From Henckelia pumila (Eukaryota; Streptophyta; Magnoliopsida; Lamiales; Gesneriaceae), in assembly GCF_033568475.1 (NCBI RefSeq), contig NC_133123.1:3596001-3660000 (forward strand): a DNA stretch of 64,000 bases. The letters run 5' to 3'. The position numbers and the translations under genes are program-made. Shown piece by piece: positions 33,482 to 54,167 of the stretch (position 1 is the first letter of the stretch; each line of letters starts with the position of its first letter). The notes beneath the pieces are model-generated. The model was not told where the DNA came from. It did not search any database and saw only the letters and a list, made by a program, of their open reading frames with translations.

Positions 33482-33970
33482 TCAAGGAAATCCTCCTCCC
33501 AATCCACCACCGGCTCCGCCACCAAACCCGCCACCAGCGCCTCCTCCCAATCCACCTCCACCACCAGCACCTCCTCCAAAACCCCCTCCTCCGCCAGCAC
33601 CTCCACCGAGTCCAGACCCACCACCATAACCTCCTCCAGCACCTCCACCAAATCCAGAACCACCACCTAGCCCTCCACCGCCTCCTCCTCCAAACCCTCC
33701 ACCGCCACCTCCACCAAGCCCACCACCAGCTCCAGCACCACCACCAAAGCCAGCTCCACCCCCATACCCAGTACCCCCGCCTAACCCTCCACCGCCGCCA
33801 CCTCCAAAACCTCCACCTCCACCTCCCCCGAGGCCGCCGCCCAATCCTGGACGGCCAGGGAAGAACGTCTTTTCATCGTCGAATTCGGAAGCACCCTTCA
33901 GATTCCTCGCGGCAGTAGCGGTGCAAAGAAGAGCTCCAAGAACAAGAACAACAAGAAACTTTGAAGCCAT
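33482..33970 (-). CDS. Secreted glycine-rich protein, copy A
   Basis: Single exon, 162 aa from the Met of MASKFLVVLVLGALLCTATA; an in-frame Met 8 codons upstream is less likely because the signal peptide starts at the second. After the signal peptide (about 1-21) come ARNLKGASEFDDEKTFFPGR and then about 115 residues of GGG/GGGF/GGGL repeats with no Cys. This is the layout of plant cell-wall structural glycine-rich proteins exported through the ER. Copy B at 40081-40602 is its paralogue in a segmental duplication. The repeats are cleaner here (pure Gly, Leu, Phe) than in copy B. The opposite-strand Pro-rich frames are a by-product of GGX codons. Confidence 0.85.
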   Translation of the reverse strand: MASKFLVVLVLGALLCTATAARNLKGASEFDDEKTFFPGRPGLGGGLGGGGGGGFGGGGGGGLGGGTGYGGGAGFGGGAGAGGGLGGGGGGGFGGGGGGGLGGGSGFGGGAGGGYGGGSGLGGGAGGGGGFGGGAGGGGGLGGGAGGGFGGGAGGGLGGGFP

Positions 33971-34047
33971 TCTCGAGTAGTGAGGAAATTGCATGAGACT
34001 CAGTCAAGATTCTTATGATGCATGAAACTTGAGAAATGGCAAGGGTG

Positions 34048-34806: not shown

Positions 34807-37442
34807 TGTAACACCCGGAAATTTTAATACGTAAATTCGCATGCATAATTAGGGAAATTAATTATTTAAAAAAAATTTATATTTGGGTTAAATGACATTT
34901 ATATGAATTATATGCATGATTTAAATTTATTTTAGCATTTAACCTGCAATTATGGTATTGTTAGATTTTTAAGGAATTATTGGTTTTGATCGCGTAGACG
35001 GGACCGTGGACGAACGAGATACCAAAATATTTAGCCAAAAATATTTTATGAGTTTTACGAGCCTTAGAATATTATTTTAGGATATTTGTCAAGAAAATTT
35101 TAGTATTTAATTATATATTTATTTAAGGGTTTATTTTTTAGCCAAAATTAGTCTCCTTATTGACTTTTATTAATTTTTAAAATTAGCCTATTTAATAATT
35201 TCGAGATTTGGAGATATCTTATCAGATTATTATTATTATTAGAGAGTTTTAATTATATTTTTAGGTATATTATCTAAATACTATTTATTTTAATTATTAA
35301 CCTATTATTTTTTTTAAAAACTAAAAACCTAAACCTACCCTACACCCCAACCCCATCAGCCGACATCTTCCTTCTCCACCCCATTCTCACGATTCCAGTA
35401 GATTTCAACAGCCTCCATAACCAAAACTTGGAGGTTTTTGGTTTGGTTTAAAGATCCGTTCGTCCCGGACATCGTACACGCATCAAGCATCTTATTTCAA
35501 TCGAAAACTCGGTGAAAGGCATGTCTATTCCTTCGTTTAAACACCATATACGCTACTATGCACGCATGATGGATTTATTTCAGATTTGTATCATGAACTT
35601 TTCGATTTATGCATGTAGGTAAGGTTTTGGAGGTGTGTTGATGATTTGTTCACTCATGGCTCACGTTTTTAATTGCATGGTTCGGTCCAGAGGCTAGGGC
35701 TCGGTCCAGGGGTGTCCTAGGGTGCCTTCGAGTCAAGCATGGTCTGCTGGGTTAGACTGGAATGGGCTAGGGTTGATCTGATGCATGGGTGTTGTTGGGG
35801 GTGACACGGCATGGCTTGGGGAAAGAAGCTATCGGCTTCTGGGTTAGGGACCATGGCTCGGGCTGAGCCATGGTGGGTTAGGACCGCCCAGAAGTGGGCT
35901 ACGTCTGGGCGGCGGCGCTCCGGCCATGGGCGGCCGGAGCCGGCCGGCAGCAGGCCATGAAGGCCTGCTGCACACGGCCGAAAGGAAGAGGGGAAGGGGG
36001 TTCGGGTTTGGGTAGTGGCTGGGGCTGGGCCGGGTCTGGGTGGTCTGGGTTGGGTCAGTAGGGTATAGGGTTGGGTCAGGTAGGTCCGGGTCCGGGCTAG
36101 GTGGGCCGGGCTCGACTATTTTTAATTTTAAAATGTTTAATGTTTTAATTGGTTTTTGGGCCATTTAATTAGAAATAAAATTATTTGGGCTTCCAAATAA
36201 TTTTATTTGGGCTTTTTAAATTATTTTTAAGTTAACCCAATAATTTTATGGGCCCGTGGGCCCATCGGAATTTTTGGGCTAGTCAGTGATTTTATTGGGT
36301 CAGTCTAGGAATTTTTATGAATTAATTAGTTATTGGGCCTAAATATTTTTATTTAAGCCCAATAACATTTAAGTATTTTATTTTAGTAAAAATTATAATT
36401 TTTAAAATTTTTATTAATTAGGGGCTTTAAGTTAAGATTAATGGGCTTAGAGTGAGTGATCAGCAGTCTGGACCAACCCATAAAAATAAACTCAGTTCGG
36501 AATATATATTTAATTATTTTTATGCATGAAGTCTATTTTAAGTAAAAGTATATTTATTATTAAAATTAATTAAATATATATTACGAACATATTTTAAATG
36601 CATGCATACATGAAATATTTTATGATGTGTTTATGATTAAGAATTGAGCATGAAAAATATTTTTATGGAAATTGAAGTGAGGTGACAGCATAGAAGTGGT
36701 TTTACCACTGACACAGAGGTAGTTCTACTACCGGCATAGAAGTGGTTTTACCACTGGCACAGAGGTAGTTTACTACCAGCATAGAGGTGGATTTATCCAC
36801 CGCCACGTACGATGGTTCTTTAGACTGATCAGTCGGCACAGTTATTAGTCACATTCATGGATATGACCATACTCAGTTTTTATGTTATGACATGCTCAAT
36901 TATGTTATGTATGATGAAGAAAGTTATGTTATGTTTATGATTTATGATTCAGCATTTATGTTATGAAAAATGTTTCCATGCATGCATGCTCATGTACATG
37001 TATATGTATTAGTATCTACGTGATGCATTATTTTTAACCTTGTTATAAAGGATTAGACATGTTGAGCCCCTAGGCTCACTACGCTTATATGGTGCAGGTG
37101 AGCATAATGACATTTATGTAGCTCCTACCGGTGGTGAGGACGTATGAGCTCACGGAGCAGTGGACCCCGTGACCGTCGCAGTTATTTAGTCTATTATGAT
37201 GGAATTTTGAAACATGTTTTATTTTATTATTATTCCGCATATGATATTTTTCAGCAGCATTGTTTATCATTTTAAATTGATGCATGAAACATTTTTAAGG
37301 ATTTATTTATTTATTTAATATTTTTCAGGTTATTTAAGAAATATATGTTATTTTTATATACATATATGTATGGGCGTATATATATAGTATTATTTTAAAG
37401 AAAAAAAAGTTTTTTCGCATTTTATTAGTAGTAGGCATTTCA
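34807..37442 (+). mobile_element. Solo LTR, Gypsy (Tekay-like), 2636 bp
   Basis: The element runs from TGTAACACCCGG to GGCATTTCA and has TG...CA ends. It is flanked by a 5-bp target duplication GTGTC at 34802-34806 and 37443-37447. There is no internal region. The start sequence and 2-3 kb length fit plant Tekay-clade Gypsy LTRs. It abuts the end of the eIFiso4G pseudogene. Inside, 36690-36800 holds hairpin-forming tandem repeats and 36130-36440 is dense in TTGGGC/GCCCAA words. A fossil; the long open frame on its minus strand near 35844-36164 is chance. Confidence 0.88.
36690..36805 (+). repeat. Hairpin tandem repeats inside solo LTR
   Basis: Alternating short palindromes GTGGTTTTACCAC and GTAGTTCTACTAC are separated by GGCATAGA and GGCACAGAG linkers, about 2.5 units of 46 bases. 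The last unit is GTGGATTTATCCAC. Each arm pair can form a small stem. Confidence 0.85.
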
Positions 37443-40080: not shown

Positions 40081-40602
40081 TCAAGGAAATCCTCCTCCCA
40101 ATCCACCACCAGCGATTCCAGCTGCCCCAGAACCACCGACTCCTCCTTCAAACCCTTCACCGCCACCTCCATTAAGTCCTGCACCACCAACTCCAAAGCC
40201 ACCTCCAAAGCGGCCACCTCCAGAGCCACCTCCAAAGCCACCTCCAGAGCCACTTCCAAAGCCACCTCCAGAGCCACCTCCAAAGCCAACTCCAATGCCA
40301 CCTCCAGAGCCACTTCCAAAGCGGCCACCTCCAAAGCCACCTCCAGAGCCACCTCCTCCACCAAGTCCACCAACGCCAGCTCCAAAGCCACCTCCAGAGC
40401 CACCTCCTCCACCAACGCCAACTCCAAAGCCAAACCCAGAACCCCCACCTAATCCTCTACCAAGGCCGCCGCCAAATCCTGGACGGCCAGGAAAAAACGT
40501 CTTTTCATTGTCGAATTCGGAAGCACCCTTGAGATTCCTCGCGGCGGTACCCGTGCAAACGAGAGCTCCAACAACAAAAACAACAAGAAACTTTGAAGCC
40601 AT
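40081..40602 (-). CDS. Secreted glycine-rich protein, copy B
   Basis: Single exon, 173 aa, start MASKFLVVFVVGALVCTGTA with a signal peptide of about 21 residues. ARNLKGASEFDNEKTFFPGR follows, then a Gly-rich region of SGGGFG/SGGG units. It is paralogous to 33482-33970. The repeat has diverged: many Ser, Arg and Val residues break the Gly runs (FGGGRFGSGSGGG), and the C-terminus GGGLGGGFP is conserved in both. Likely a cell-wall structural protein. The promoter TATA near 40695-40702 is conserved between copies, so both may be expressed. Confidence 0.85.
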   Translation of the reverse strand: MASKFLVVFVVGALVCTGTAARNLKGASEFDNEKTFFPGRPGFGGGLGRGLGGGSGFGFGVGVGGGGGSGGGFGAGVGGLGGGGGSGGGFGGGRFGSGSGGGIGVGFGGGSGGGFGSGSGGGFGGGSGGGRFGGGFGVGGAGLNGGGGEGFEGGVGGSGAAGIAGGGLGGGFP

Positions 40603-40870
40603 GCTCGAGTACTGAGGAAATTGCATGAGACTCGGTAGTCAAGATAATTAATTCTTGGTGATGCTTGAAACTTGAGAAATATATAGCAAGGGTGATTATA
40701 TAGTAATTACAAGATCGATCCTTATATATAATTAATGAAGAGCAGCGTTGGCACGATATATATATGCATGTCTAATAGTAATATTGGAGTTAGTATCTTC
40801 TCAAAAATAACCACGTAATGACTGAACAATTCATTAATGCAAATCGCCATTTTTCTTACGTCCTGCTTGC

Positions 40871-43849: not shown

Positions 43850-45315
43850 AGAATACTCAAAAATAGGAAAAATTTAAAAAACTACTCAAAAATTCCCATG
43901 CACATATAACACGCCCAAGTGTGTGAGAGAGATGAACTAGCGCGGGGAACTTGAAAAGTAGCGCGGGTGGGGGACCCCGGGTGCAAATATAAAAAAAAAC
44001 TCTAGGACATTTGGCGACGCGTTAGCCTTACATTTGAAGACGCAAAAACACGTCGTCAATTTTTTTTTTCGAACCCCATGCGCGCCCTCGCTGTTTGGTA
44101 GGCGCAGGGGCGCATGCCCTACGCACCCATCTCCATTTTATTTTTTTTTTGGCCTAAACGTCTGAAATGGCGCCACATCGACACAATAATCAAATTCTAC
44201 AATAAAAAGGGTTTTAAACATCATGAAAACGAGATTAAAATGCAACATGACTCGACAATGGAAAAATACTCGACATTGTCCAAATTACAAGCCCATTAAA
44301 ACAAGCTAAAACCCGGATCTCCACTTCTATTCAATCCCACACACAAAACAAAGCAACAACCGGAAAATCGGTAAGTATAAAAACTTAGTATGTACAACAG
44401 AAGCATATAATCATCAAATATGTCAACTTAAATGCATTTCAAATCGATAAGACACAATCAATGCTATTGAAATTAAATAATGCTTTTCATGAAATGCATG
44501 TTCAAGAATATGCTGGCTTGCAACAATGGGCAACAATCATCGAGGTTAGTATCCGACCCCGACATCAAGATTCGTATCCGATCTCGGTATACGTCAAGAC
44601 CTGCAACAACTAGGAAAAAGCCGAAAAGCACGTTCAAATTGCATCCCTTTGTGGTAACGGCTATTTCGGACCTTTTCTTGCCGCAAGGGTTGAGTCTTTG
44701 AAAACGTTAAAAAAGTATTCAAAAAAAGACCTAACAAGATTAAGTGAATACCTAAAATTCCAAGCTCCTGCTAACCCCACCTAAGACTGAATTCGTATCC
44801 GACCCAACATCAAGGTTCGTATCCGACCTCGACATTAAGATTTGTATCCGATCTCAGCATCAATGCTATCAATTTCGAATAAAGATGACTCAATATGAAT
44901 GAGATAATGCAAAATACATATATCAACATATCTTGCTCTCGCTAATGCTCGTTTCAAAAACCATCTCAATAACATGCATGTAAATCGATTCATGGAAATG
45001 ACATAGCAACAAATATCAAAAATCACCGAGCAACATCAAAATATAATTATGTCATCAATCAAAATACGAGAATCGAATCACATAATCCAAACAATAACAT
45101 GTAACAAGTAAAATGTGTGATTTTTCTCGGGACTCGAGAATTCAACTCATCTCGAGGTTCAATCTTTCCTCGTATGCTCATACATTCAAATCTCAATTTT
45201 CCGAAATGCTCAACTGCAATGCTACACAATACGAGCTCATATAAATTTTTATTTGATCAATTATCAATATTTTCAATACAAAATTAAACTAAACCTCGAT
45301 CGAATTCTCAACAAC
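43850..45315 (-). mobile_element. LTR-derived block related to the 6968 solo LTR
   Basis: It shares ACAAAACAAAGCAACAA and AAGATTCGTATCCGATCT with the solo LTR at 6968-9375, in the same relative order. At 44541-44870 there are four copies of a CGACATCAAGATTCGTATCC-like phrase. Ends were not found. Together with 41670-42729 it forms a block bracketed by copies of a 60-base host sequence. A fossil, family probably Gypsy. Confidence 0.5.
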
Positions 45316-45374
45316 TCTATGATAGTTATAATTTTCTAAATTATATATTTTAAGTAAAATATATTATCAATTTT

Positions 45375-45680
45375 CTAATTTCGTAATTAAATGGTAATAT
45401 CCAGTAATAATTATTTTACAATGCGAAATTAAAATAATTATGTCAAATAAATTAATTGTGTATTAAAAATATGTATTAATAAATATCAATTTATAGACGA
45501 TATTAAAATGCATATTTGATATATAGAGCACACAAGAGTTAAAATAACTTAAATCAAATCAAGTTTTAACCCCAAATAAATGAAAAGAGTATACACATTT
45601 AATTTAATTTGGCATAATTATTTAAATTTCGCATTTTAAAATTGTTATTACTGGATCTTGCCAATTAATTACGAAATTAG
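45375..45680. mobile_element. 306-bp foldback/MITE with about 85-bp inverted arms
   Basis: The left arm starts CTAATTTCGTAATTAA at 45375. Its complement starts at 45680 with CTAATTTCGTAATTAA. Both arms continue through ATCCAGTAATAA and ATGCGAAATT to ATAATTATG. The spacer is AT-rich, with no coding capacity. Confidence 0.8.
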
Positions 45681-45753
45681 CATCGGATCCTTACATGTAT
45701 TTTACAAAAAAAAATAATTAGTTTAACAAAATCGGATCGCCAAGAATCTCAAC

Positions 45754-45756
<3 letters not shown>

Positions 45757-45809
<53 letters not shown>
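45757..45809. repeat. (TA)n microsatellite
   Basis: About 26 uninterrupted TA units. Confidence 0.95.
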
Positions 45810-45813
<4 letters not shown>

Positions 45814-46678
45814 TATGACCTGCTATGTGTGACTAATATTATATGTGTATTTTAAAAATAAAAATATATATTATATGTACATCTTGTAGTGTACATTTGG
45901 TTTATATCTATTTACAATTTCTTTCATTAACTACAAAATTACCCATGATAAGAGTAAGAATAATGCTAGACGTACACCTAAGTGCATATCTTGGTTTACA
46001 CTCTTACTTATTAATTACAAAATTTTTCTTGATAACTAGATATTTATTTCTTATCATGATTAGTTTTGTATTTAATGAGAAAAATGAGAGAAATATTTAA
46101 GTAAGGGTGTAAACCAAAATGAACACTACAAGGTGTACATCTAACATTTTTCAAAAAATAAGCTATAGTTTTGTAATTAATAAGGATAAATATAAATCAA
46201 AGTGTACATCTAGCTAGCATTACTCTTTTAAAAATCCAGAGGAGTGAAATCCCATTTTGAAATAAAACATCTCCTTGATGTTGCAAATTAAACTAAACAC
46301 AAAAACTAATATTAGATCTCATGCACGGTTTAATTTGTGAGACAAATTTCAAATTTAACTGATAAAAAAAATTATTTATCAAAGCATGCAATTCTACCAA
46401 TATAGATTAAATGAAATCATTTTACGATAGAACAATCCATCGAGTTGGTAAAAAAAAAAAACAAATATATTTGCTCAATATATTAACAATCCAAAACAAC
46501 AACAAAAAAAAGAACATTTTATTATCTAATTATTTTCTTAAAAAAAATATTGACCAAGTCCATTTCTTCAAATATCCAAAAAAAATATATATATATATCA
46601 AACTATCCTTCCCTTCCCTATATATCCTCCAAACATTATCCATAAACTACACCAAACAGGTGATCGAACATAAGCGAA

Positions 46679-47088
46679 ATGAATTCCATAACATGCCACT
46701 CTTTACCCCCTTCGTCTCTTCCAAATTGCAGTTACATTCGCCAAAGGAGGATGGTTTTTCAGTCCAAGAAAGCATTCAAGATTCAAGAAAATCGAGCAGG
46801 ATTCTCGTCTTTTAGAACCTGGGCCACAGTTCCTCCTGTTTATATCACCGCTAGTTCGCCGGCTAACAGCGGAAACTTATCGGTCCTGCTTCAGACAAGG
46901 TGTAAGATTGTGATGTTTATAATGTAATAATTTGATCGATTGATTTATCTGTGTAATTTGTTGGCAGCGCCGTGCTTCTGTTTGCTTACTGGATTGCCAA
47001 TTTTGTGGTGCCGGCCTTTATTATGGAAGATTATCGAAGAGATAAGTCAGAAGACAACCAGGATAATAATGATCCATCCCAAGATTAG
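46679..47088 (+). CDS. Small probable plastid membrane protein
   Basis: Two exons (46679-46899, 46968-47088) joined at AG|C give 113 aa. I do not recognise the family with confidence. The first about 45 residues (MNSITCHSLPPSSLPNCSYI then RQRRMVFQSKKAF) are Ser-rich and basic with no early acid, as in chloroplast transit peptides. A conserved-looking segment PPVYITASSPANSGNLSVLL leads into one hydrophobic span, VLLFAYWIANFVVPAFIM, at residues about 75-93. The C-terminus is strongly charged and Asn/Asp-rich, ending NDPSQD. The 68-base intron has good GTGTAAG and GGCAG borders, and a TATATATA-type box lies near 46586-46597. Codon use and a clean splice support a real gene. Confidence 0.65.
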
Positions 47089-47775: not shown

Positions 47776-47779
47776 TAAT

Positions 47780-49560
47780 TTTCGGGCCTCCTGGTAATAC
47801 TTGGGTGAAGCCCAATACTAACAGCGCAACCCAAAATATTCAGGCCTCCTGGTAATACTTCTCTTTTTGCCTGCTTGTAACAGTTTTCTTGGTCCACCCC
47901 ATTAGTAGGCCCGGCCCATGTGGACCTATTCCAGGATTCGCGGCAAACCAATATTCGGCCTGCTCTGCTGGTAACCGTAACACTTTTGTTGGGCCTTTTG
48001 GTGGATTCATTGCAGCCCAATATTAAGCCTGCTATGATGGTAACACTTATTTTGGGCCTATTTCAAGATTCACCTTAGCCCAATTACAATTCCCTTAGTA
48101 CCTAGCCCAATTCAAGTGGGGCCAGGATTAAATATAGCCCAATTTGCGATACTTACTTCGTTTATTGCCTAGACCAATTCATCTTGGGCCCATCCAGGAT
48201 TCACCGCAGCCCAATACTTCTCTTGACCCTAGGGCATTGAATAATATTCGTAGGCTTAGCCCAATACTGAATTAAGGCCTATTAATGACTAGCACAATTT
48301 AAATTAGGCCTATTCATTCACCGCAGCCCAATTAGTACTTCTTTTAATACTTAGCCCAATTTAAATTGGGTCTATTCATTCACATCAGCCCAATTAGTAC
48401 TTCTTTTAATACTTAGCCCAATTTTAATTGGACCGAATATTAAGTCGGCTCAGTTGATAACACTTATTTTGGGCCTATTTCAATATTCACCTGAGCCCAA
48501 TATGCAATTTGCTTGGTTCCTAGGCCAATTAAAGATGGGCCCAATTAGTACTTTTAATACTTAGACCAATTTAAATTGGGCCTATTCATTCATGATACAT
48601 ACCCTTGCGAACTGATGCCCTTTCTTGAGGAGTGTCTGTTTTACTGCAGCCCAATAAGTACTTCTTTTTAATACTTATCCCAATTTAAATTGGGCCGAAT
48701 ATTAAGTCTGCTCTGTTTGTAACACTTATTTTGGGCCTATTTCAATATTCACCTGAGCCCAATATTCAATTCTCTTAGTGCCTAGCCCAATTAAAGTTGG
48801 GCCTATACCGGTTTAAACGTAGCCCAATAATAATACTTACTTTGTTTATTCCCCAGCCCAATTTAGTTTGCCCACCCCGGATTCATCCCAGCCCAATACC
48901 ATTGGGCTTAGGCATTCAATAATTTTCGTGGGCCTATGCCGGTTTAAACGTAGCCCAATAATAATACTTACTTTGTTTATTCCCCAGCCCAATTTAGTTT
49001 GGCCCACCCAGGATTCATCGCAGCCCAATACCATTGGGCTTAGGCATTCAATAATTTTCGTGGGCTTTGCCCAATACATAATTAAGGCCCATTCTTGCCT
49101 AGCCCGATTTTAATTGGGCCTACTCAGACCAATGGGCTTAACCCAATACTAAATTGTGTGCCTATTCTTGCTTGCCCAATTTGGGCATTTTCCTGGAATA
49201 ACTGCAGCCCGATACTTATTTTGGGCCTAAATATTTAATACTTAGTTTTCTTGGACCTAATCCAATATTTTACTTGGGCCTATTATTCAGTATTTCTTTT
49301 AGGCATATAGCACAATTATACTTGGGCCTTTGGCCGTTAAATACTTTGGGCCTATTGCAGAAGGCAATACCTATTTTTCTATCAGTGCGTAGCCCAATTC
49401 AAGTTGATTCTATTACAGGATTCACCGTTGCCCAATTACTTATTTTGGGCCTAAGCATTCGTTAAGTTTGTATTATTGACCCTAATCCAATATATTTCTG
49501 AGTTCTATTAGTCTAGCACAATCAATTGGGTATAGTGCGCAGCCCAATGTTCTGGCCTGC
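47780..49560. repeat. Degenerate GCCCAA/TTGGGC motif array
   Basis: By hand count about 27 GCCCAA and 17 TTGGGC words lie in 1.78 kb, mostly as AGCCCAAT and ATTGGGCCTA, often facing each other as GCCCAATTTAAATTGGGC. Spacers reuse phrases such as GGATTCACCGCAGCCCAAT, TACTTCTTTTAATACTTAGC and TAACACTTATTTTGGGCCTA in a layered, decayed minisatellite. There is no open frame of note. TGGGCC is also the site II motif bound by TCP factors and AGCCCAAT contains a CCAAT core, so protein binding is conceivable but not shown. The array stops about 25 bases before the tRNA-Phe gene. Confidence 0.85.
48801..49062. repeat. 131-bp tandem duplication within the array
   Basis: GCCTATACCGGTTTAAACGT begins at 48801 and GCCTATGCCGGTTTAAACGT at 48932. 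Both units run to CAATAATTTTCGTGGGC. The near-identity shows the array is still changing by local duplication. Confidence 0.9.
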
Positions 49561-49575
49561 TACTAGCTTTTCTGC

Positions 49576-49583: not shown

Positions 49584-49608
49584 TGCGGTGAGCGTGGATC
49601 GAACACGC

Positions 49609-49651
<43 letters not shown>

Positions 49652-49656
49652 CCCGC
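49584..49656 (-). tRNA. tRNA-Phe (GAA)
   Basis: The minus strand reads GCGGGGATAGCTCAGTTGGG at the 5' end. The anticodon loop is CTGAAGA (anticodon GAA), the T loop GTTCGATCC, and the gene ends TCACCGC plus discriminator A. Length is 73 bases without intron. A-box (TAGCTCAGTTGGG) and B-box (GGTTCGATCC-like, here TGTTCGATCC) are intact. The acceptor stem has one G-A mismatch at pair 5-68, as I recall for plant cytosolic tRNA-Phe. CCA is not encoded, as expected for a nuclear gene. Confidence 0.96.
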
Positions 49657-50835
49657 TTCATGGTTTGGATGTTTCTTAAACCTTTTATATAGCCGTTTTG
49701 TAATTATATTTTGTTTGGCCTAAATTGTCTGGGTCAAGTCAAATCTGTTGTCGAATTTTATCCAAATTCTGAATTTTATTCTGAAATTAAATAAATTTAA
49801 AAATAATATATACGAGTCTTTATATTTACGTATGATCAATTATTAAAAATTTTTTTTGTTCGTTTTGGTTTCATCCATTTTTCTAATTTGTGAAAATGCA
49901 TAATATTGCACTTGTGTTCTAAAGAGATGTTTTTAAAATATTATAGCGAGATAAATTAGCAATTATGAAAAGAGGAACAATTTGTGAAAGTTACAATATC
50001 AAATCTACCAAAATTGTCTCTAATAGGCTGAAACTCAATGTATAGTAAGGTAGTTAAGTGAGGTTTGTTTGGGTTTGGCAGCAGTGATAATGCCAGATTG
50101 TGAGCCTTTTTTTTTTGGTGTTATTAATCTTTGTTGGTTTGGTACGGTATTTTCATTTTAAGAAACTCACTCAATTAGCTATATCTAAGATTTTTTGAAA
50201 GGGGATTGATAAGTGGGAAAATGAACCCTTAGACACTTCTTGTATTAAGGATCCATATTTTAAACTATCCATTTTATTCCCCAAATGCCCTAACCAAAAT
50301 GAAGCGCCTAAATGTTGGTATTGGATGTTAACTTGGACGTAAGTAAGTTCATCATATTCACAAAAATCACATTATTCGTCATATATTACATTTACGTACC
50401 TATCATTTTTTTCACTATTGTTTATTTATTTAGTAATCATTCAATAATTACTACTTTGAGCCAAGTGTTACCTAAGAGATGTCAAATCTCTTGTTCATCC
50501 AAGAGATTGGACAAGGGTCGCATTGGATGTTTCTCCAAGCTCTTTCTTTGTGCCGATTGTGTGGTTTACATATTCAATAAACGAATCACCATCAAACATA
50601 CAAATCACATATTCAATAAACGAACCACCATCAAACATACAAAATATCTTGCATAATAACATCGAGTGGATAAAATTTTATAAAACACCACATAAAAACC
50701 AATACTCAAATTCTTATCAAGTTCAAGATGAAAATCATGTTTCTTAGAAGGATAGAACCGAGACAATACAAAGAATATACAAGTTTATCATAAACAATAG
50801 ATATATACGAATAGAGGCTAAGCTACAAATACTTC
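49657..50835. other. Intergenic with a 39-bp tandem duplication
   Basis: TATTCAATAAACGAATCACC starts at 50571 and a near copy at 50610; both contain ACCATCAAACATACAAA. The last about 100 bases before 50836 are probably the ATG8 3' UTR. No other gene is seen. Confidence 0.5.
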
Positions 50836-52385
<1,550 letters not shown>

Positions 52386-54167
52386 GGCGCCCGGTGTTGA
52401 AGCAACGATCGGCGAAAGAAGATTGGAGAAATAAAGGGGAAAATCAAAATCCCGTTTCAAGGATAGATAGGTTTTCTTGCCTTAAAAACGAGATATTAAA
52501 TATTTAATTGATTCTGACGTATTACCGGATTCATTTTTTGATTTACTATACGTCTTCTTCAATTAAGGAATAAAAATCATAATTTGTGTACATATCTTAT
52601 ATTATCGGATGAAAATCGTTTTCTAAAATCTCCAAAACTCATATTAATTTATGAATTTTAGTTTATCATAACTTCACTCCGTCCCACATTTTTAAACAGT
52701 ATTTCCTATTTAATTGTTTTTTTAGGAACCTATTTAATTGTTTTTAATTACTAATATGTCTATTTAATTATTACAACATTCATTACTTAAAGACGACACG
52801 AAAAATTTCTTGTAAAATCTAAAAAAAGTAATTTATTCAAGTCGAAGGTTCATATTTCATATATGCAAACATCGGTACACAAATCCAATATCGAAAATCG
52901 ACATATACAAAAGAAAACCCATAAGGTATTGTCGAACCAAATCTCCATCCAAGTGATCCAAGTACTACGTGCGACATTAAGAATGTATTATCATATACTA
53001 CAAAAGCTAAAATTTAAGATTAATATCATGATCTCATATTGACTCGAATAACTTGGATATCATAAACCAATTATCCATTGTCTTAATTTCATGTATGATT
53101 GTATTCTTGTTTCTATATTCCAAGGATGGAGCTTGCTGAGGTCGGGGTTCCTCTATGGACATGGTAGTTGGGAGCGTTGTGTTTCTGAAGGTGGCCTTGG
53201 AAAAGAATGCTTCCATTGAAGAGGACAAAGGTTAATTCACAATCCAACTTTTTTCCCTGTGTACCTTTGTTTCCCCGATATATTATGGAAATATAACTAT
53301 TCTAAACTCATGAGAACGATGTTTGCAAAAAATCCATCCAAGACAAAGTTTGGAAATTAAAGTCGAAAATCAGATGATACAGCTAAAAGTTACTCCGAAT
53401 ATTGCTAAATTTATAATGTTTTCGCATCATTGTGACTGTCACTAAATAGGAAATCAACATATATCATAGATCATGATGAGCAACATGGATTCCTATAAAC
53501 AAGGTCTCTGCTCATTAGTACCAATTTATAGTTACACGTAACAGTTCCAGGTGGCTCTAGAAGGAAATGCAATTTCTTTTCTTTCTTGGCAGTGATTATG
53601 TACCTGATTGTACAAAAAGATCAGTAAACTAAGAAGTTCCTGAATGCTGTTATGTACCTGCAGAAACATCATAGCACAAATTAGGAGTTAAAGCAACCTC
53701 AAAACATGAGGTACTCTTGATCAGAGAAAGAGCAGCAGGAGCCGAGGGGAATTAGAATTTGATTGTGAGCCGAGGGAAAAAAAAGGCCTATCTACAAGGT
53801 TTTCACAATAAGACTTGAAGCACAAAAAGTGGGGGAGGGATAATTTTTTTTCCCTCGTTTTTTAGATTCTGTTCACATTAAAAAAGACCATCTGCTTTTC
53901 TATCAAAGAAATAATAACATTTTGTATTGTCTCAAACATTATTGCGGTCGCATCACATTTTAATTCATCTAATGACTTGTCTAAACGGAAGTCGAAACTC
54001 GAAGGTCAATAAACAAATAAAACCAACAACATAAAATTTAGTTATGTGAAATCAGTGAGGTGTAATCCAAGAAGTTTTTAGAGATGAACCTTAGAACAAT
54101 CTGAGGATTTTTTAAGAAGGAATTAAACAGGTAGAATTGAACTCACATGGGGATATTCACCATAGTT
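52386..54167. other. Intergenic, ATG8 promoter and CTR1 3' flank
   Basis: No TATA close to ATG8 is obvious. A 64-codon frame at 53034-53228 (minus) has no recognised motif. 53560-54160 is probably partly the 3' UTR of the CTR1-like gene. Confidence 0.4.

What the first reader, a model, noticed from the sequence alone, without database searches (positions are those of the whole stretch)
47780..49560. Dense GCCCAA/TTGGGC array ending at a tRNA-Phe gene
About 44 copies of one 6-bp word (both strands) in 1.78 kb, alternating as AGCCCAAT ... ATTGGGCCTA, with spacers reused in layers and a fresh 131-bp duplication inside. Chance would give less than one. The word overlaps site II (TGGGCC, TCP factors) and a CCAAT core, so it could act as a binding platform, a boundary next to Pol III transcription, or be a decayed minisatellite. 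I know of no named plant repeat of this form.
Basis: partly seen in the sequence, partly recalled or inferred. Interest (0 to 1): 0.7.

Follow-up and report, generated by a model that had tools for sequence, protein, structure and literature searches.

The report
Decayed minisatellite beside tRNA-Phe gene
In a plant chromosome, a worn tandem repeat packed with a short regulatory-looking word sits just behind a transfer-RNA gene, and a shorter core of that word also lies behind most sister copies of the gene in this genome, which may be a new control element or a quirk of a small sample.

Summary
The array is real: 44 exact GCCCAA/TTGGGC words (27 plus, 17 minus) in 47780-49560, against 0.7-2.5 by chance, ending 36 bases from the 3' end of a tRNA-Phe(GAA) gene. 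The words do not alternate beyond chance. They sit in 17 near-full copies of a ~50-bp three-word module (mean pairwise identity 65%), with 62-, 131- and 262-bp layers and a 51-bp filler. So it is an old, locally grown, decaying complex minisatellite; blastn finds no other copy in the 885-Mb genome. Its word grammar is not unique: LTR-like families and an unread array on C3 share it. 40 of 44 words are site II motifs (TGGGCY). Within modules they are better kept than spacers; long-range tests are inconclusive, so selection is not shown. Unexpectedly, the core GCCCA has the lowest p of all 5-mers (near-tied with AAAAA) in the 300 bp 3' of the other seven tRNA-Phe genes: 15 seen, 2.3 expected, 6 of 7 loci; 1 on the 5' side. 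A word starts at +32 to +49 in five of seven and at +38 here. Fourteen non-Phe tRNA genes show little of this. Best reading: a minisatellite grown from a small site-II cluster of the kind sister genes carry.

The parts
47777..49570 (.). whole array (decayed complex minisatellite); left edge at the AATTTTCGGGCCTCCTGGTAATACTT repeat
   Evidence: 44 exact words; tandem and direct-repeat families; edges set by eye
47777..47860 (+). left-end duplicated 26-bp piece (47777-47802 and 47835-47860, 92%)
   Evidence: family D16
48077..49534 (+). zone holding 17 near-full copies of the ~50-bp three-word module (AGCCCAAT - ~19 bp - TAGCCCAATT - 4 bp - TTGGGCC)
   Evidence: iterated profile search, 23 rows of which 17 near-full; alignment, mean pairwise identity 0.65
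48282..48431 (+). 62-bp tandem, 2.4 copies
   Evidence: TRF, 91% matches
48404..48803 (+). 262-bp-offset duplicate pair (48404-48541 and 48666-48803, 90%)
   Evidence: family D2
48590..48640 (+). 51-bp filler between two modules, identical to part of a longer sequence at C4:117145242 and C2:121829948
48798..49065 (+). recent 131-bp tandem duplication, 97%
49542..49547 (+). last GCCCAA word of the array, nearest to the tRNA (TGGGC core at +38 in tRNA orientation)
49584..49656 (-). tRNA-Phe(GAA) gene, 66.1 bits, identical to five other copies in the genome; a T4 run starts at the 5th base after its 3' end
50761..52392 (.). segment with a diverged partial duplicate (four pieces, 70-84%) at C1:101090123-101091787, near another tRNA-Phe gene

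Best explanation
The array is a complex minisatellite that grew in place, by repeated short tandem duplication and break repair, in the 3' flank of a tRNA-Phe gene. Its seed was most likely a small cluster of site II words (core GCCCA) of the kind that most tRNA-Phe genes in this genome carry about 30-50 bp and further behind the gene. Growth is old (modules 65% alike) but has gone on (131-bp copy 97% alike; 51-bp filler unchanged). Shown: repeat structure, layering, no second copy by blastn, core-word excess at sister genes. Inferred: the seed, the repair mechanism, that the gene is functional, and that the words bind TCP-type factors; a binding role is possible but not shown.
For: 17 near-full module copies from an iterated profile, mean pairwise identity 0.65; layered periods 62, 131, 262; self-alignments over hundreds of bases; 51-bp filler. 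blastn returned no other copy in the genome (the tool scores only best candidates and skips very common words). The module profile gave 21 rows in the array and 3 short ones in two other loci (L044 best, 28 bases, E 0.0012) in 251 kb of held, partly overlapping loci plus the rest of the window. At a putative duplicated locus on C1, 9.39 kb around another tRNA-Phe hold 8 words, two of them 38 and 62 bp behind the gene, so the array is a later gain here or a loss there. GCCCA ranks first among 5-mers on the 3' side of the other seven tRNA-Phe genes: 15 vs 2.26, 6 of 7 loci, p 1.90e-8, with AAAAA at 1.92e-8; words start at +39, +49, +39, +36 and +32 in five of seven and at +38 here.
Against: Only seven other tRNA-Phe genes were found to test; L006 has no core word within 300 bp and L011 has its first at +151. 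Fourteen of 63 listed tRNA matches, none Phe, show 3 words in 2 loci within 120 bp, 1.8 expected, so the pattern is not general. The +30 to +50 zone was chosen after seeing the data. The 3' flanks of the sister genes show no clear homology to each other or to the window's flank, so a common seed is not proved. The seed could instead be a word-bearing repeat such as the C3 array with 44-bp steps, whose letters I could not read.
Confidence: 0.6

Rival explanations
1. Passive decayed minisatellite with no function and no link to the tRNA: the gene is a chance neighbour and the words are frequent only because the founding module held three of them. (Shares the origin of the best explanation; differs on the seed and on any role.)
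For: The structure follows from duplication and decay. Words intact in both of two long-range copies (11 of 44, 9 of 25, 6 of 14) stay inside the neutral 95% range at matched spacer divergence; a fourth pair, 7 of 27, had no simulation of its own. Per-site ratios 0.68 and 0.60 lie inside neutral ranges. No array at the other seven tRNA-Phe genes. Orientation is not ordered.
Against: Word columns are kept at 0.892 vs 0.689 for spacers (Mann-Whitney p 2.8e-4), a gap reached by 0 of 80 and 0 of 54 kept neutral simulations. A third per-site ratio, 0.45, is below the 1-kb neutral range but inside the 318-base one. The aligned copies hold more words (44, 25, 14) than decay from a word-restored start left on average (19.6-31.5, 11.7-19.1, 6.2-9.6). 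Core-word excess behind sister genes.
Confidence: 0.5
2. A TCP (site II) binding platform kept by selection: many TGGGCY words hold TCP-type factors behind the tRNA gene and tune Pol III output or shield neighbours.
For: 21 TGGGCC and 27 TGGGCT in the region, both strands; module word conservation; more words than neutral decay left; core word at similar distance behind five of seven sister genes. Site II motifs mark genes of the translation machinery (PMC3022908, passages).
Against: No telo box in the array, the usual partner in ribosomal-protein promoters (0). Position-by-position retention tests inconclusive. No binding or chromatin data. Modules were found by a profile that rests partly on the words, which favours word columns, and the tree simulations were more diverged (mean identity 0.57 and 0.50) than the data (0.65).
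Confidence: 0.25
3. Remnant of a transposon or LTR rich in the same word.
For: The triple-word pattern has 447 matches against 2 for the reversed control, many of the listed ones in pairs about 7.5 kb apart as expected of LTRs (listing capped); a similar cluster lies in the window at 36156-36362. Two C3 places carry four matches each, three of them at 44-bp steps.
Against: Genome-wide blastn of the array returned none of them; permissive blastn to 35 held loci gave only weak matches (L044 E 0.002, L017 E 0.011 over the array proper). The 30 loci held reach at most 13 words in 1.78 kb, mostly one orientation, against 44 here. No full module hit in held loci.
Confidence: 0.15
4. Subterminal binding-site array of a CACTA-like or hAT-like DNA transposon (many short motifs in both orientations).
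For: Many short motifs in both orientations in ~1.8 kb; that such transposon ends look so is recalled, not from a call.
Against: blastn returned no second copy. Terminal repeats, target-site duplications and transposase were not searched for.
Confidence: 0.03

Closest known systems
Complex (higher-order) minisatellites
   Same: Tandem units of tens of bases, nested periods, old decay with a recent duplication, filler at a likely break
   Different: Units are built from one 6-bp word in both orientations, and the array abuts a tRNA gene; no other copy returned by blastn
Redundant site II (TGGGCY) clusters in plant promoters (PMC3022908, passages)
   Same: Same motif, several copies within short distance
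   Different: 48 copies over 1.8 kb, no telo box, lies behind a Pol III gene. A Pol II gene on that side was not searched for beyond ORFs: one search lists one ORF of 130 aa or more (46411-46815) between 40.7 and 60.8 kb
Known plant tRNA-gene flank signals: upstream CAA and TATA, downstream poly(T) (PMC11700998, passages)
   Same: The gene has a T4 run starting at the 5th base after its 3' end
   Different: A downstream GCCCA core is not among the signals in the passages read; the term GCCCA occurs 0 times in that paper's main text
LTR-like families of this genome with repeated GCCCAAT / TTGGGC words
   Same: Same words, several per kb
   Different: Mostly one orientation in the 30 loci held, and no module hit there

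Membership tests
Minisatellite (complex tandem repeat) | Head-to-tail units of ~10-100 bp | tested here: met
   62- and 131-bp tandems; 17 module copies
Minisatellite (complex tandem repeat) | Units homologous beyond the shared word | tested here: met
   54-column consensus, spacer columns 0.689 on average
Minisatellite (complex tandem repeat) | Length variation between individuals | not testable with these tools
   one genome only
Dispersed transposon or LTR family | Homologous copies elsewhere in the genome | tested here: inconclusive
   blastn of array returned itself, a 51-bp filler and an AT-rich flank match, but the tool scores best candidates only and the letters of the C3 look-alikes were not available
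Site II promoter cluster | Two or more TGGGCY motifs close together | tested here: met
   21 TGGGCC and 27 TGGGCT
Site II promoter cluster | Association with telo box | tested here: not met
   0 in the array
Site II promoter cluster | TCP factor binding | not testable with these tools
   no binding data held
tRNA-Phe 3' word element (proposed) | GCCCA core enriched on the 3' side, not the 5' side | tested here: met
   15 vs 1 within 300 bp in seven other loci, 2.3 expected
tRNA-Phe 3' word element (proposed) | Present behind tRNA genes in general | tested here: not met
   14 of 63 read: 3 words in 2 loci within 120 bp, 1.8 expected; B-box patterns TGGGC 21, GCCCA 13, permuted GTGGC 7; 3 of the 21 and none of the 13 overlap tRNA matches listed
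tRNA-Phe 3' word element (proposed) | Conserved in other plants | not testable with these tools
   no other plant genome was on hand

The most novel reading that the evidence does not exclude
tRNA-Phe genes of this plant carry a positioned site II (GCCCA) element about 30-50 bp behind the gene, just past the Pol III terminator, that ties Pol III output of this tRNA to TCP growth control; at this locus the element ran away into a 44-word minisatellite kept under selection for its words.
Probability: 0.15. Interest if true: 0.8.

Novelty: new variant of a known kind. Interest (0 to 1): 0.42.

Why it matters
The array itself is an unusual but understandable minisatellite. The lead with reach is the excess of a TCP-type core word behind tRNA-Phe genes: plant tRNA genes are described as controlled by internal boxes, upstream CAA/TATA and downstream T runs (PMC11700998, passages). 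A positioned downstream element would link Pol III genes to the motif that marks ribosomal-protein genes (PMC3022908, passages). It could be tested in any plant genome with TCP binding maps.

Tried and rejected
Strict alternation of the two orientations: rejected. LTR origin: word grammar shared, sequence homology not found at the sensitivity used. A general tRNA 3' signal: not supported by 14 sampled genes or by the B-box pattern counts. Promoters of protein genes as the reason for words behind tRNA-Phe: ORFs around the seven loci show no common arrangement by eye (L012 appears to lie inside a GDSL-lipase-like gene, a label recalled; L008's long neighbouring ORF runs away on the 5' side); not tested further. 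Species identification by assembly size gave nothing certain. Paper searches for tRNA genes with site II/TCP, downstream GCCCA, minisatellites beside tRNA genes, tRNA flanks and LTRs with TGGGCC showed no report of this in their listings; beyond listings I saw only passages of PMC11700998 and PMC3022908.

Dropped or limiting: in the tree simulation 40 of 120 and 66 of 120 simulated sets had no word left in their consensus and were left out, and the simulated sets were more diverged than the data. The profile gave 23 rows; 17 near-full ones were used, two of which overlap by 11 bases. Model R1 was built from 12 of the 17 and never searched. Whether any of the 14 sampled tRNA genes is organelle-derived was not checked.

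Full report
The observation. The window lies in an 885-Mb plant assembly, G000:C4:3596001-3660000. Between 47780 and 49560 there are 44 exact GCCCAA/TTGGGC words, 27 on the plus and 17 on the minus strand; the rest of the window holds 24. Shuffles of the whole window give a mean of 23.7 per 64 kb, about 0.66 for this length; shuffles of the region itself give 2.5, at most 9 in 1000. Of the 44 words 40 read TGGGCY and 4 TGGGCA. The tRNA-Phe(GAA) gene at 49584-49656 is on the minus strand, 66.1 bits, with a T4 run starting at the 5th base after its 3' end. The array is therefore behind the gene, its last word ending 36 bases away. The words do not alternate: 24 orientation switches in 43 steps, 20.9 by shuffling, 20% of shuffles at least as many.

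What it is. Direct-repeat and tandem-repeat searches show nested units: 62 bp (48282-48431), 131 bp (48798-49065, 97%), a 262-bp offset pair at 90%, and 13 copies of a 37-base piece at 65% or more. An iterated profile search gave 23 rows, 17 of them near-full copies of a module of about 50 bp with three words, plus, plus, minus. The 17 align with mean pairwise identity 0.65, range 0.39-0.94. Self-alignments run over hundreds of bases at 59-73%. A 51-base stretch at 48590-48640, between two modules, is identical to part of a sequence at C4:117145242 and C2:121829948; those two places are 97% alike over 2.0 kb. It looks like filler from break repair (inference). This is the anatomy of an old complex minisatellite that has gone on turning over.

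Elsewhere in the genome. blastn of a 541-base part returned only the array; the whole array returned itself, the filler, and an AT-rich flank match. The tool warns that only best candidates are scored and very common words skipped. A permissive blastn to 35 held loci gave mostly AT-rich flank matches, and over the array proper only weak ones (L044, 64%, E 0.002; L017, E 0.011). The module profile gave 21 rows in the array and 3 short ones in L044 and L024 (best 28 bases, E 0.0012) in 251 kb of held loci plus the rest of the window. The word grammar is wider: GCCCAAT..TTGGGCCTA has 34 matches, 5 in the array, control 11; GCCCAAT..GCCCAAT..TTGGGC has 447, control 2, many of the listed ones in pairs about 7.5 kb apart as in LTRs (the listing is capped and did not reach C4); AGCCCAAT..TAGCCCAATT has 39, 5 in the array, control 6, with two C3 places holding four each, three of them at 44-bp steps. 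Those C3 letters could not be read. The 30 loci held reach at most 13 words per 1.78 kb, mostly in one orientation. A six-word cluster of similar look is in the window at 36156-36362.

Are the words under selection? In the module alignment word columns agree with the consensus at 0.892 and spacer columns at 0.689 (21 and 33 columns, p 2.8e-4); neutral simulations on the module tree never reached that gap (0 of 80 and 0 of 54 kept sets; 40 and 66 of 120 were dropped because no word was left; simulated identity 0.57 and 0.50 against 0.65 observed). The modules were found with a profile that leans on the words, so this is biased towards conservation. Two other tests, on long-range copies, are inconclusive. 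Substitution ratios word/spacer are 0.68, 0.60 and 0.45 against neutral means 0.67-0.85; 0.45 is below the 5% points of the 1-kb simulations (0.54-0.67) but not of the 318-base ones (0.31-0.41), and its own length was not simulated. Words intact in both copies are 11 of 44, 9 of 25 and 6 of 14, above the neutral mean at matched spacer divergence but inside its 95% range; a fourth pair, 7 of 27, was not simulated. In the same call the copies hold more words (44, 25, 14 intact in either) than decay from a word-restored start left on average (19.6-31.5, 11.7-19.1, 6.2-9.6), which fits retention, turnover of words, or a denser or younger start. Selection is possible, not shown.

The tRNA side. The genome search found eight tRNA-Phe genes, six identical (the window's among them) and two at 97%. 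None of the other seven has an array: 1-4 GCCCAA in 3 kb. But on their 3' side, within 300 bp, the five-base core GCCCA/TGGGC occurs 0, 4, 2, 3, 3, 2 and 1 times (L006-L012), 15 in all against 2.3 expected; on the 5' side once. It has the lowest Poisson p of the 5-mers on the 3' side (1.90e-8), practically tied with AAAAA (1.92e-8); 6 of 7 loci have it (binomial p 0.0026; within 60 bp 5 of 7, p 2e-5). Words start at +39 (L007), +49 (L008), +39 (L009), +9 and +36 (L010) and +32 (L012); the first is at +151 in L011 and none is in L006; in the window the first is at +38. The +30 to +50 zone was chosen after seeing the data; 5 words against 0.16 expected. The sister 3' flanks show no clear homology to each other or to the window's.

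Is it general? Of 63 scored tRNA matches I read 14, about every third of the first 40 rows: 3 words in 2 loci on the 3' side within 120 bp, both tRNA-Arg(TCT), and 1 on the 5' side, against 1.8 expected per side at the window rate. Phe loci 5 of 7 against 2 of 14 gives Fisher p 0.017. B-box patterns gave TGGGC 21 (control 4), GCCCA 13 (control 5), permuted GTGGC 7 (control 1); 3 of the 21 and none of the 13 overlap tRNA matches, and many of the rest do not look like tRNA genes by eye. The number of tRNA genes with that B box was not counted. So a general signal is not supported, and not excluded at low level.

A duplicated locus. Four pieces of 50761-52392 have 70-84% matches within C1:101090123-101091787, and another tRNA-Phe gene lies 4.7 kb from it, in the opposite relative orientation. 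In 9.39 kb there, 8 words occur, two of them 38 and 62 bp behind the tRNA gene. If the loci are duplicates, the array grew here after the split or was lost there, and the sparse words may be the older state. The orientation difference needs an inversion, so this is inference.

Known signals. PMC3022908 (passages) defines site II as TGGGCY and ties it, with telo boxes, to genes for the translation machinery; the array has no telo box. PMC11700998 (passages) lists upstream TATA and CAA and downstream poly(T) for plant tRNA genes; the term GCCCA occurs 0 times in its main text. That TCP factors bind this core is recalled knowledge and was not tested. The listings showed no report of the pattern described here.

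Verdict. A real, locally grown, decaying minisatellite made largely of site II words. By itself it is a new variant of a known kind. The excess of the core word behind the sister genes is the part worth following, on a sample of seven.

Noticed in passing
window 36156-36362: Second, smaller cluster of six GCCCAA/TTGGGC words; by eye it resembles the word-rich LTR-like loci L045 and L046.
   Followed up: partly
G000:C3:106497890-106499134 and C3:122239428-122240671: Two places with the same layout, each with four AGCCCAAT..TAGCCCAATT matches, three at 44-bp steps: another tandem array with the same word grammar, not readable here.
   Followed up: no
L026 (C2:109595775-109598799), about 1470-1860: A different tandem array (unit in the tens of bases) carrying TTGGGCC about once per unit; similar matched strings occur at several other places.
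   Followed up: no
L106, L107 and C2:164364498: Two tRNA-Arg(TCT) genes, and a third tRNA match with the same 3' end as L107, also have TGGGC within 60 bp behind the gene.
   Followed up: partly
window 33482-34003 and 40081-40638 (minus strand): Two glycine-rich ORFs with similar N-terminal parts by eye, apparently duplicates about 6.6 kb apart.
   Followed up: no
window 45000-46230: Left flank made of several dispersed repeat families (69 matches from 40 of 1169 scored candidates), unlike the right flank.
   Followed up: no
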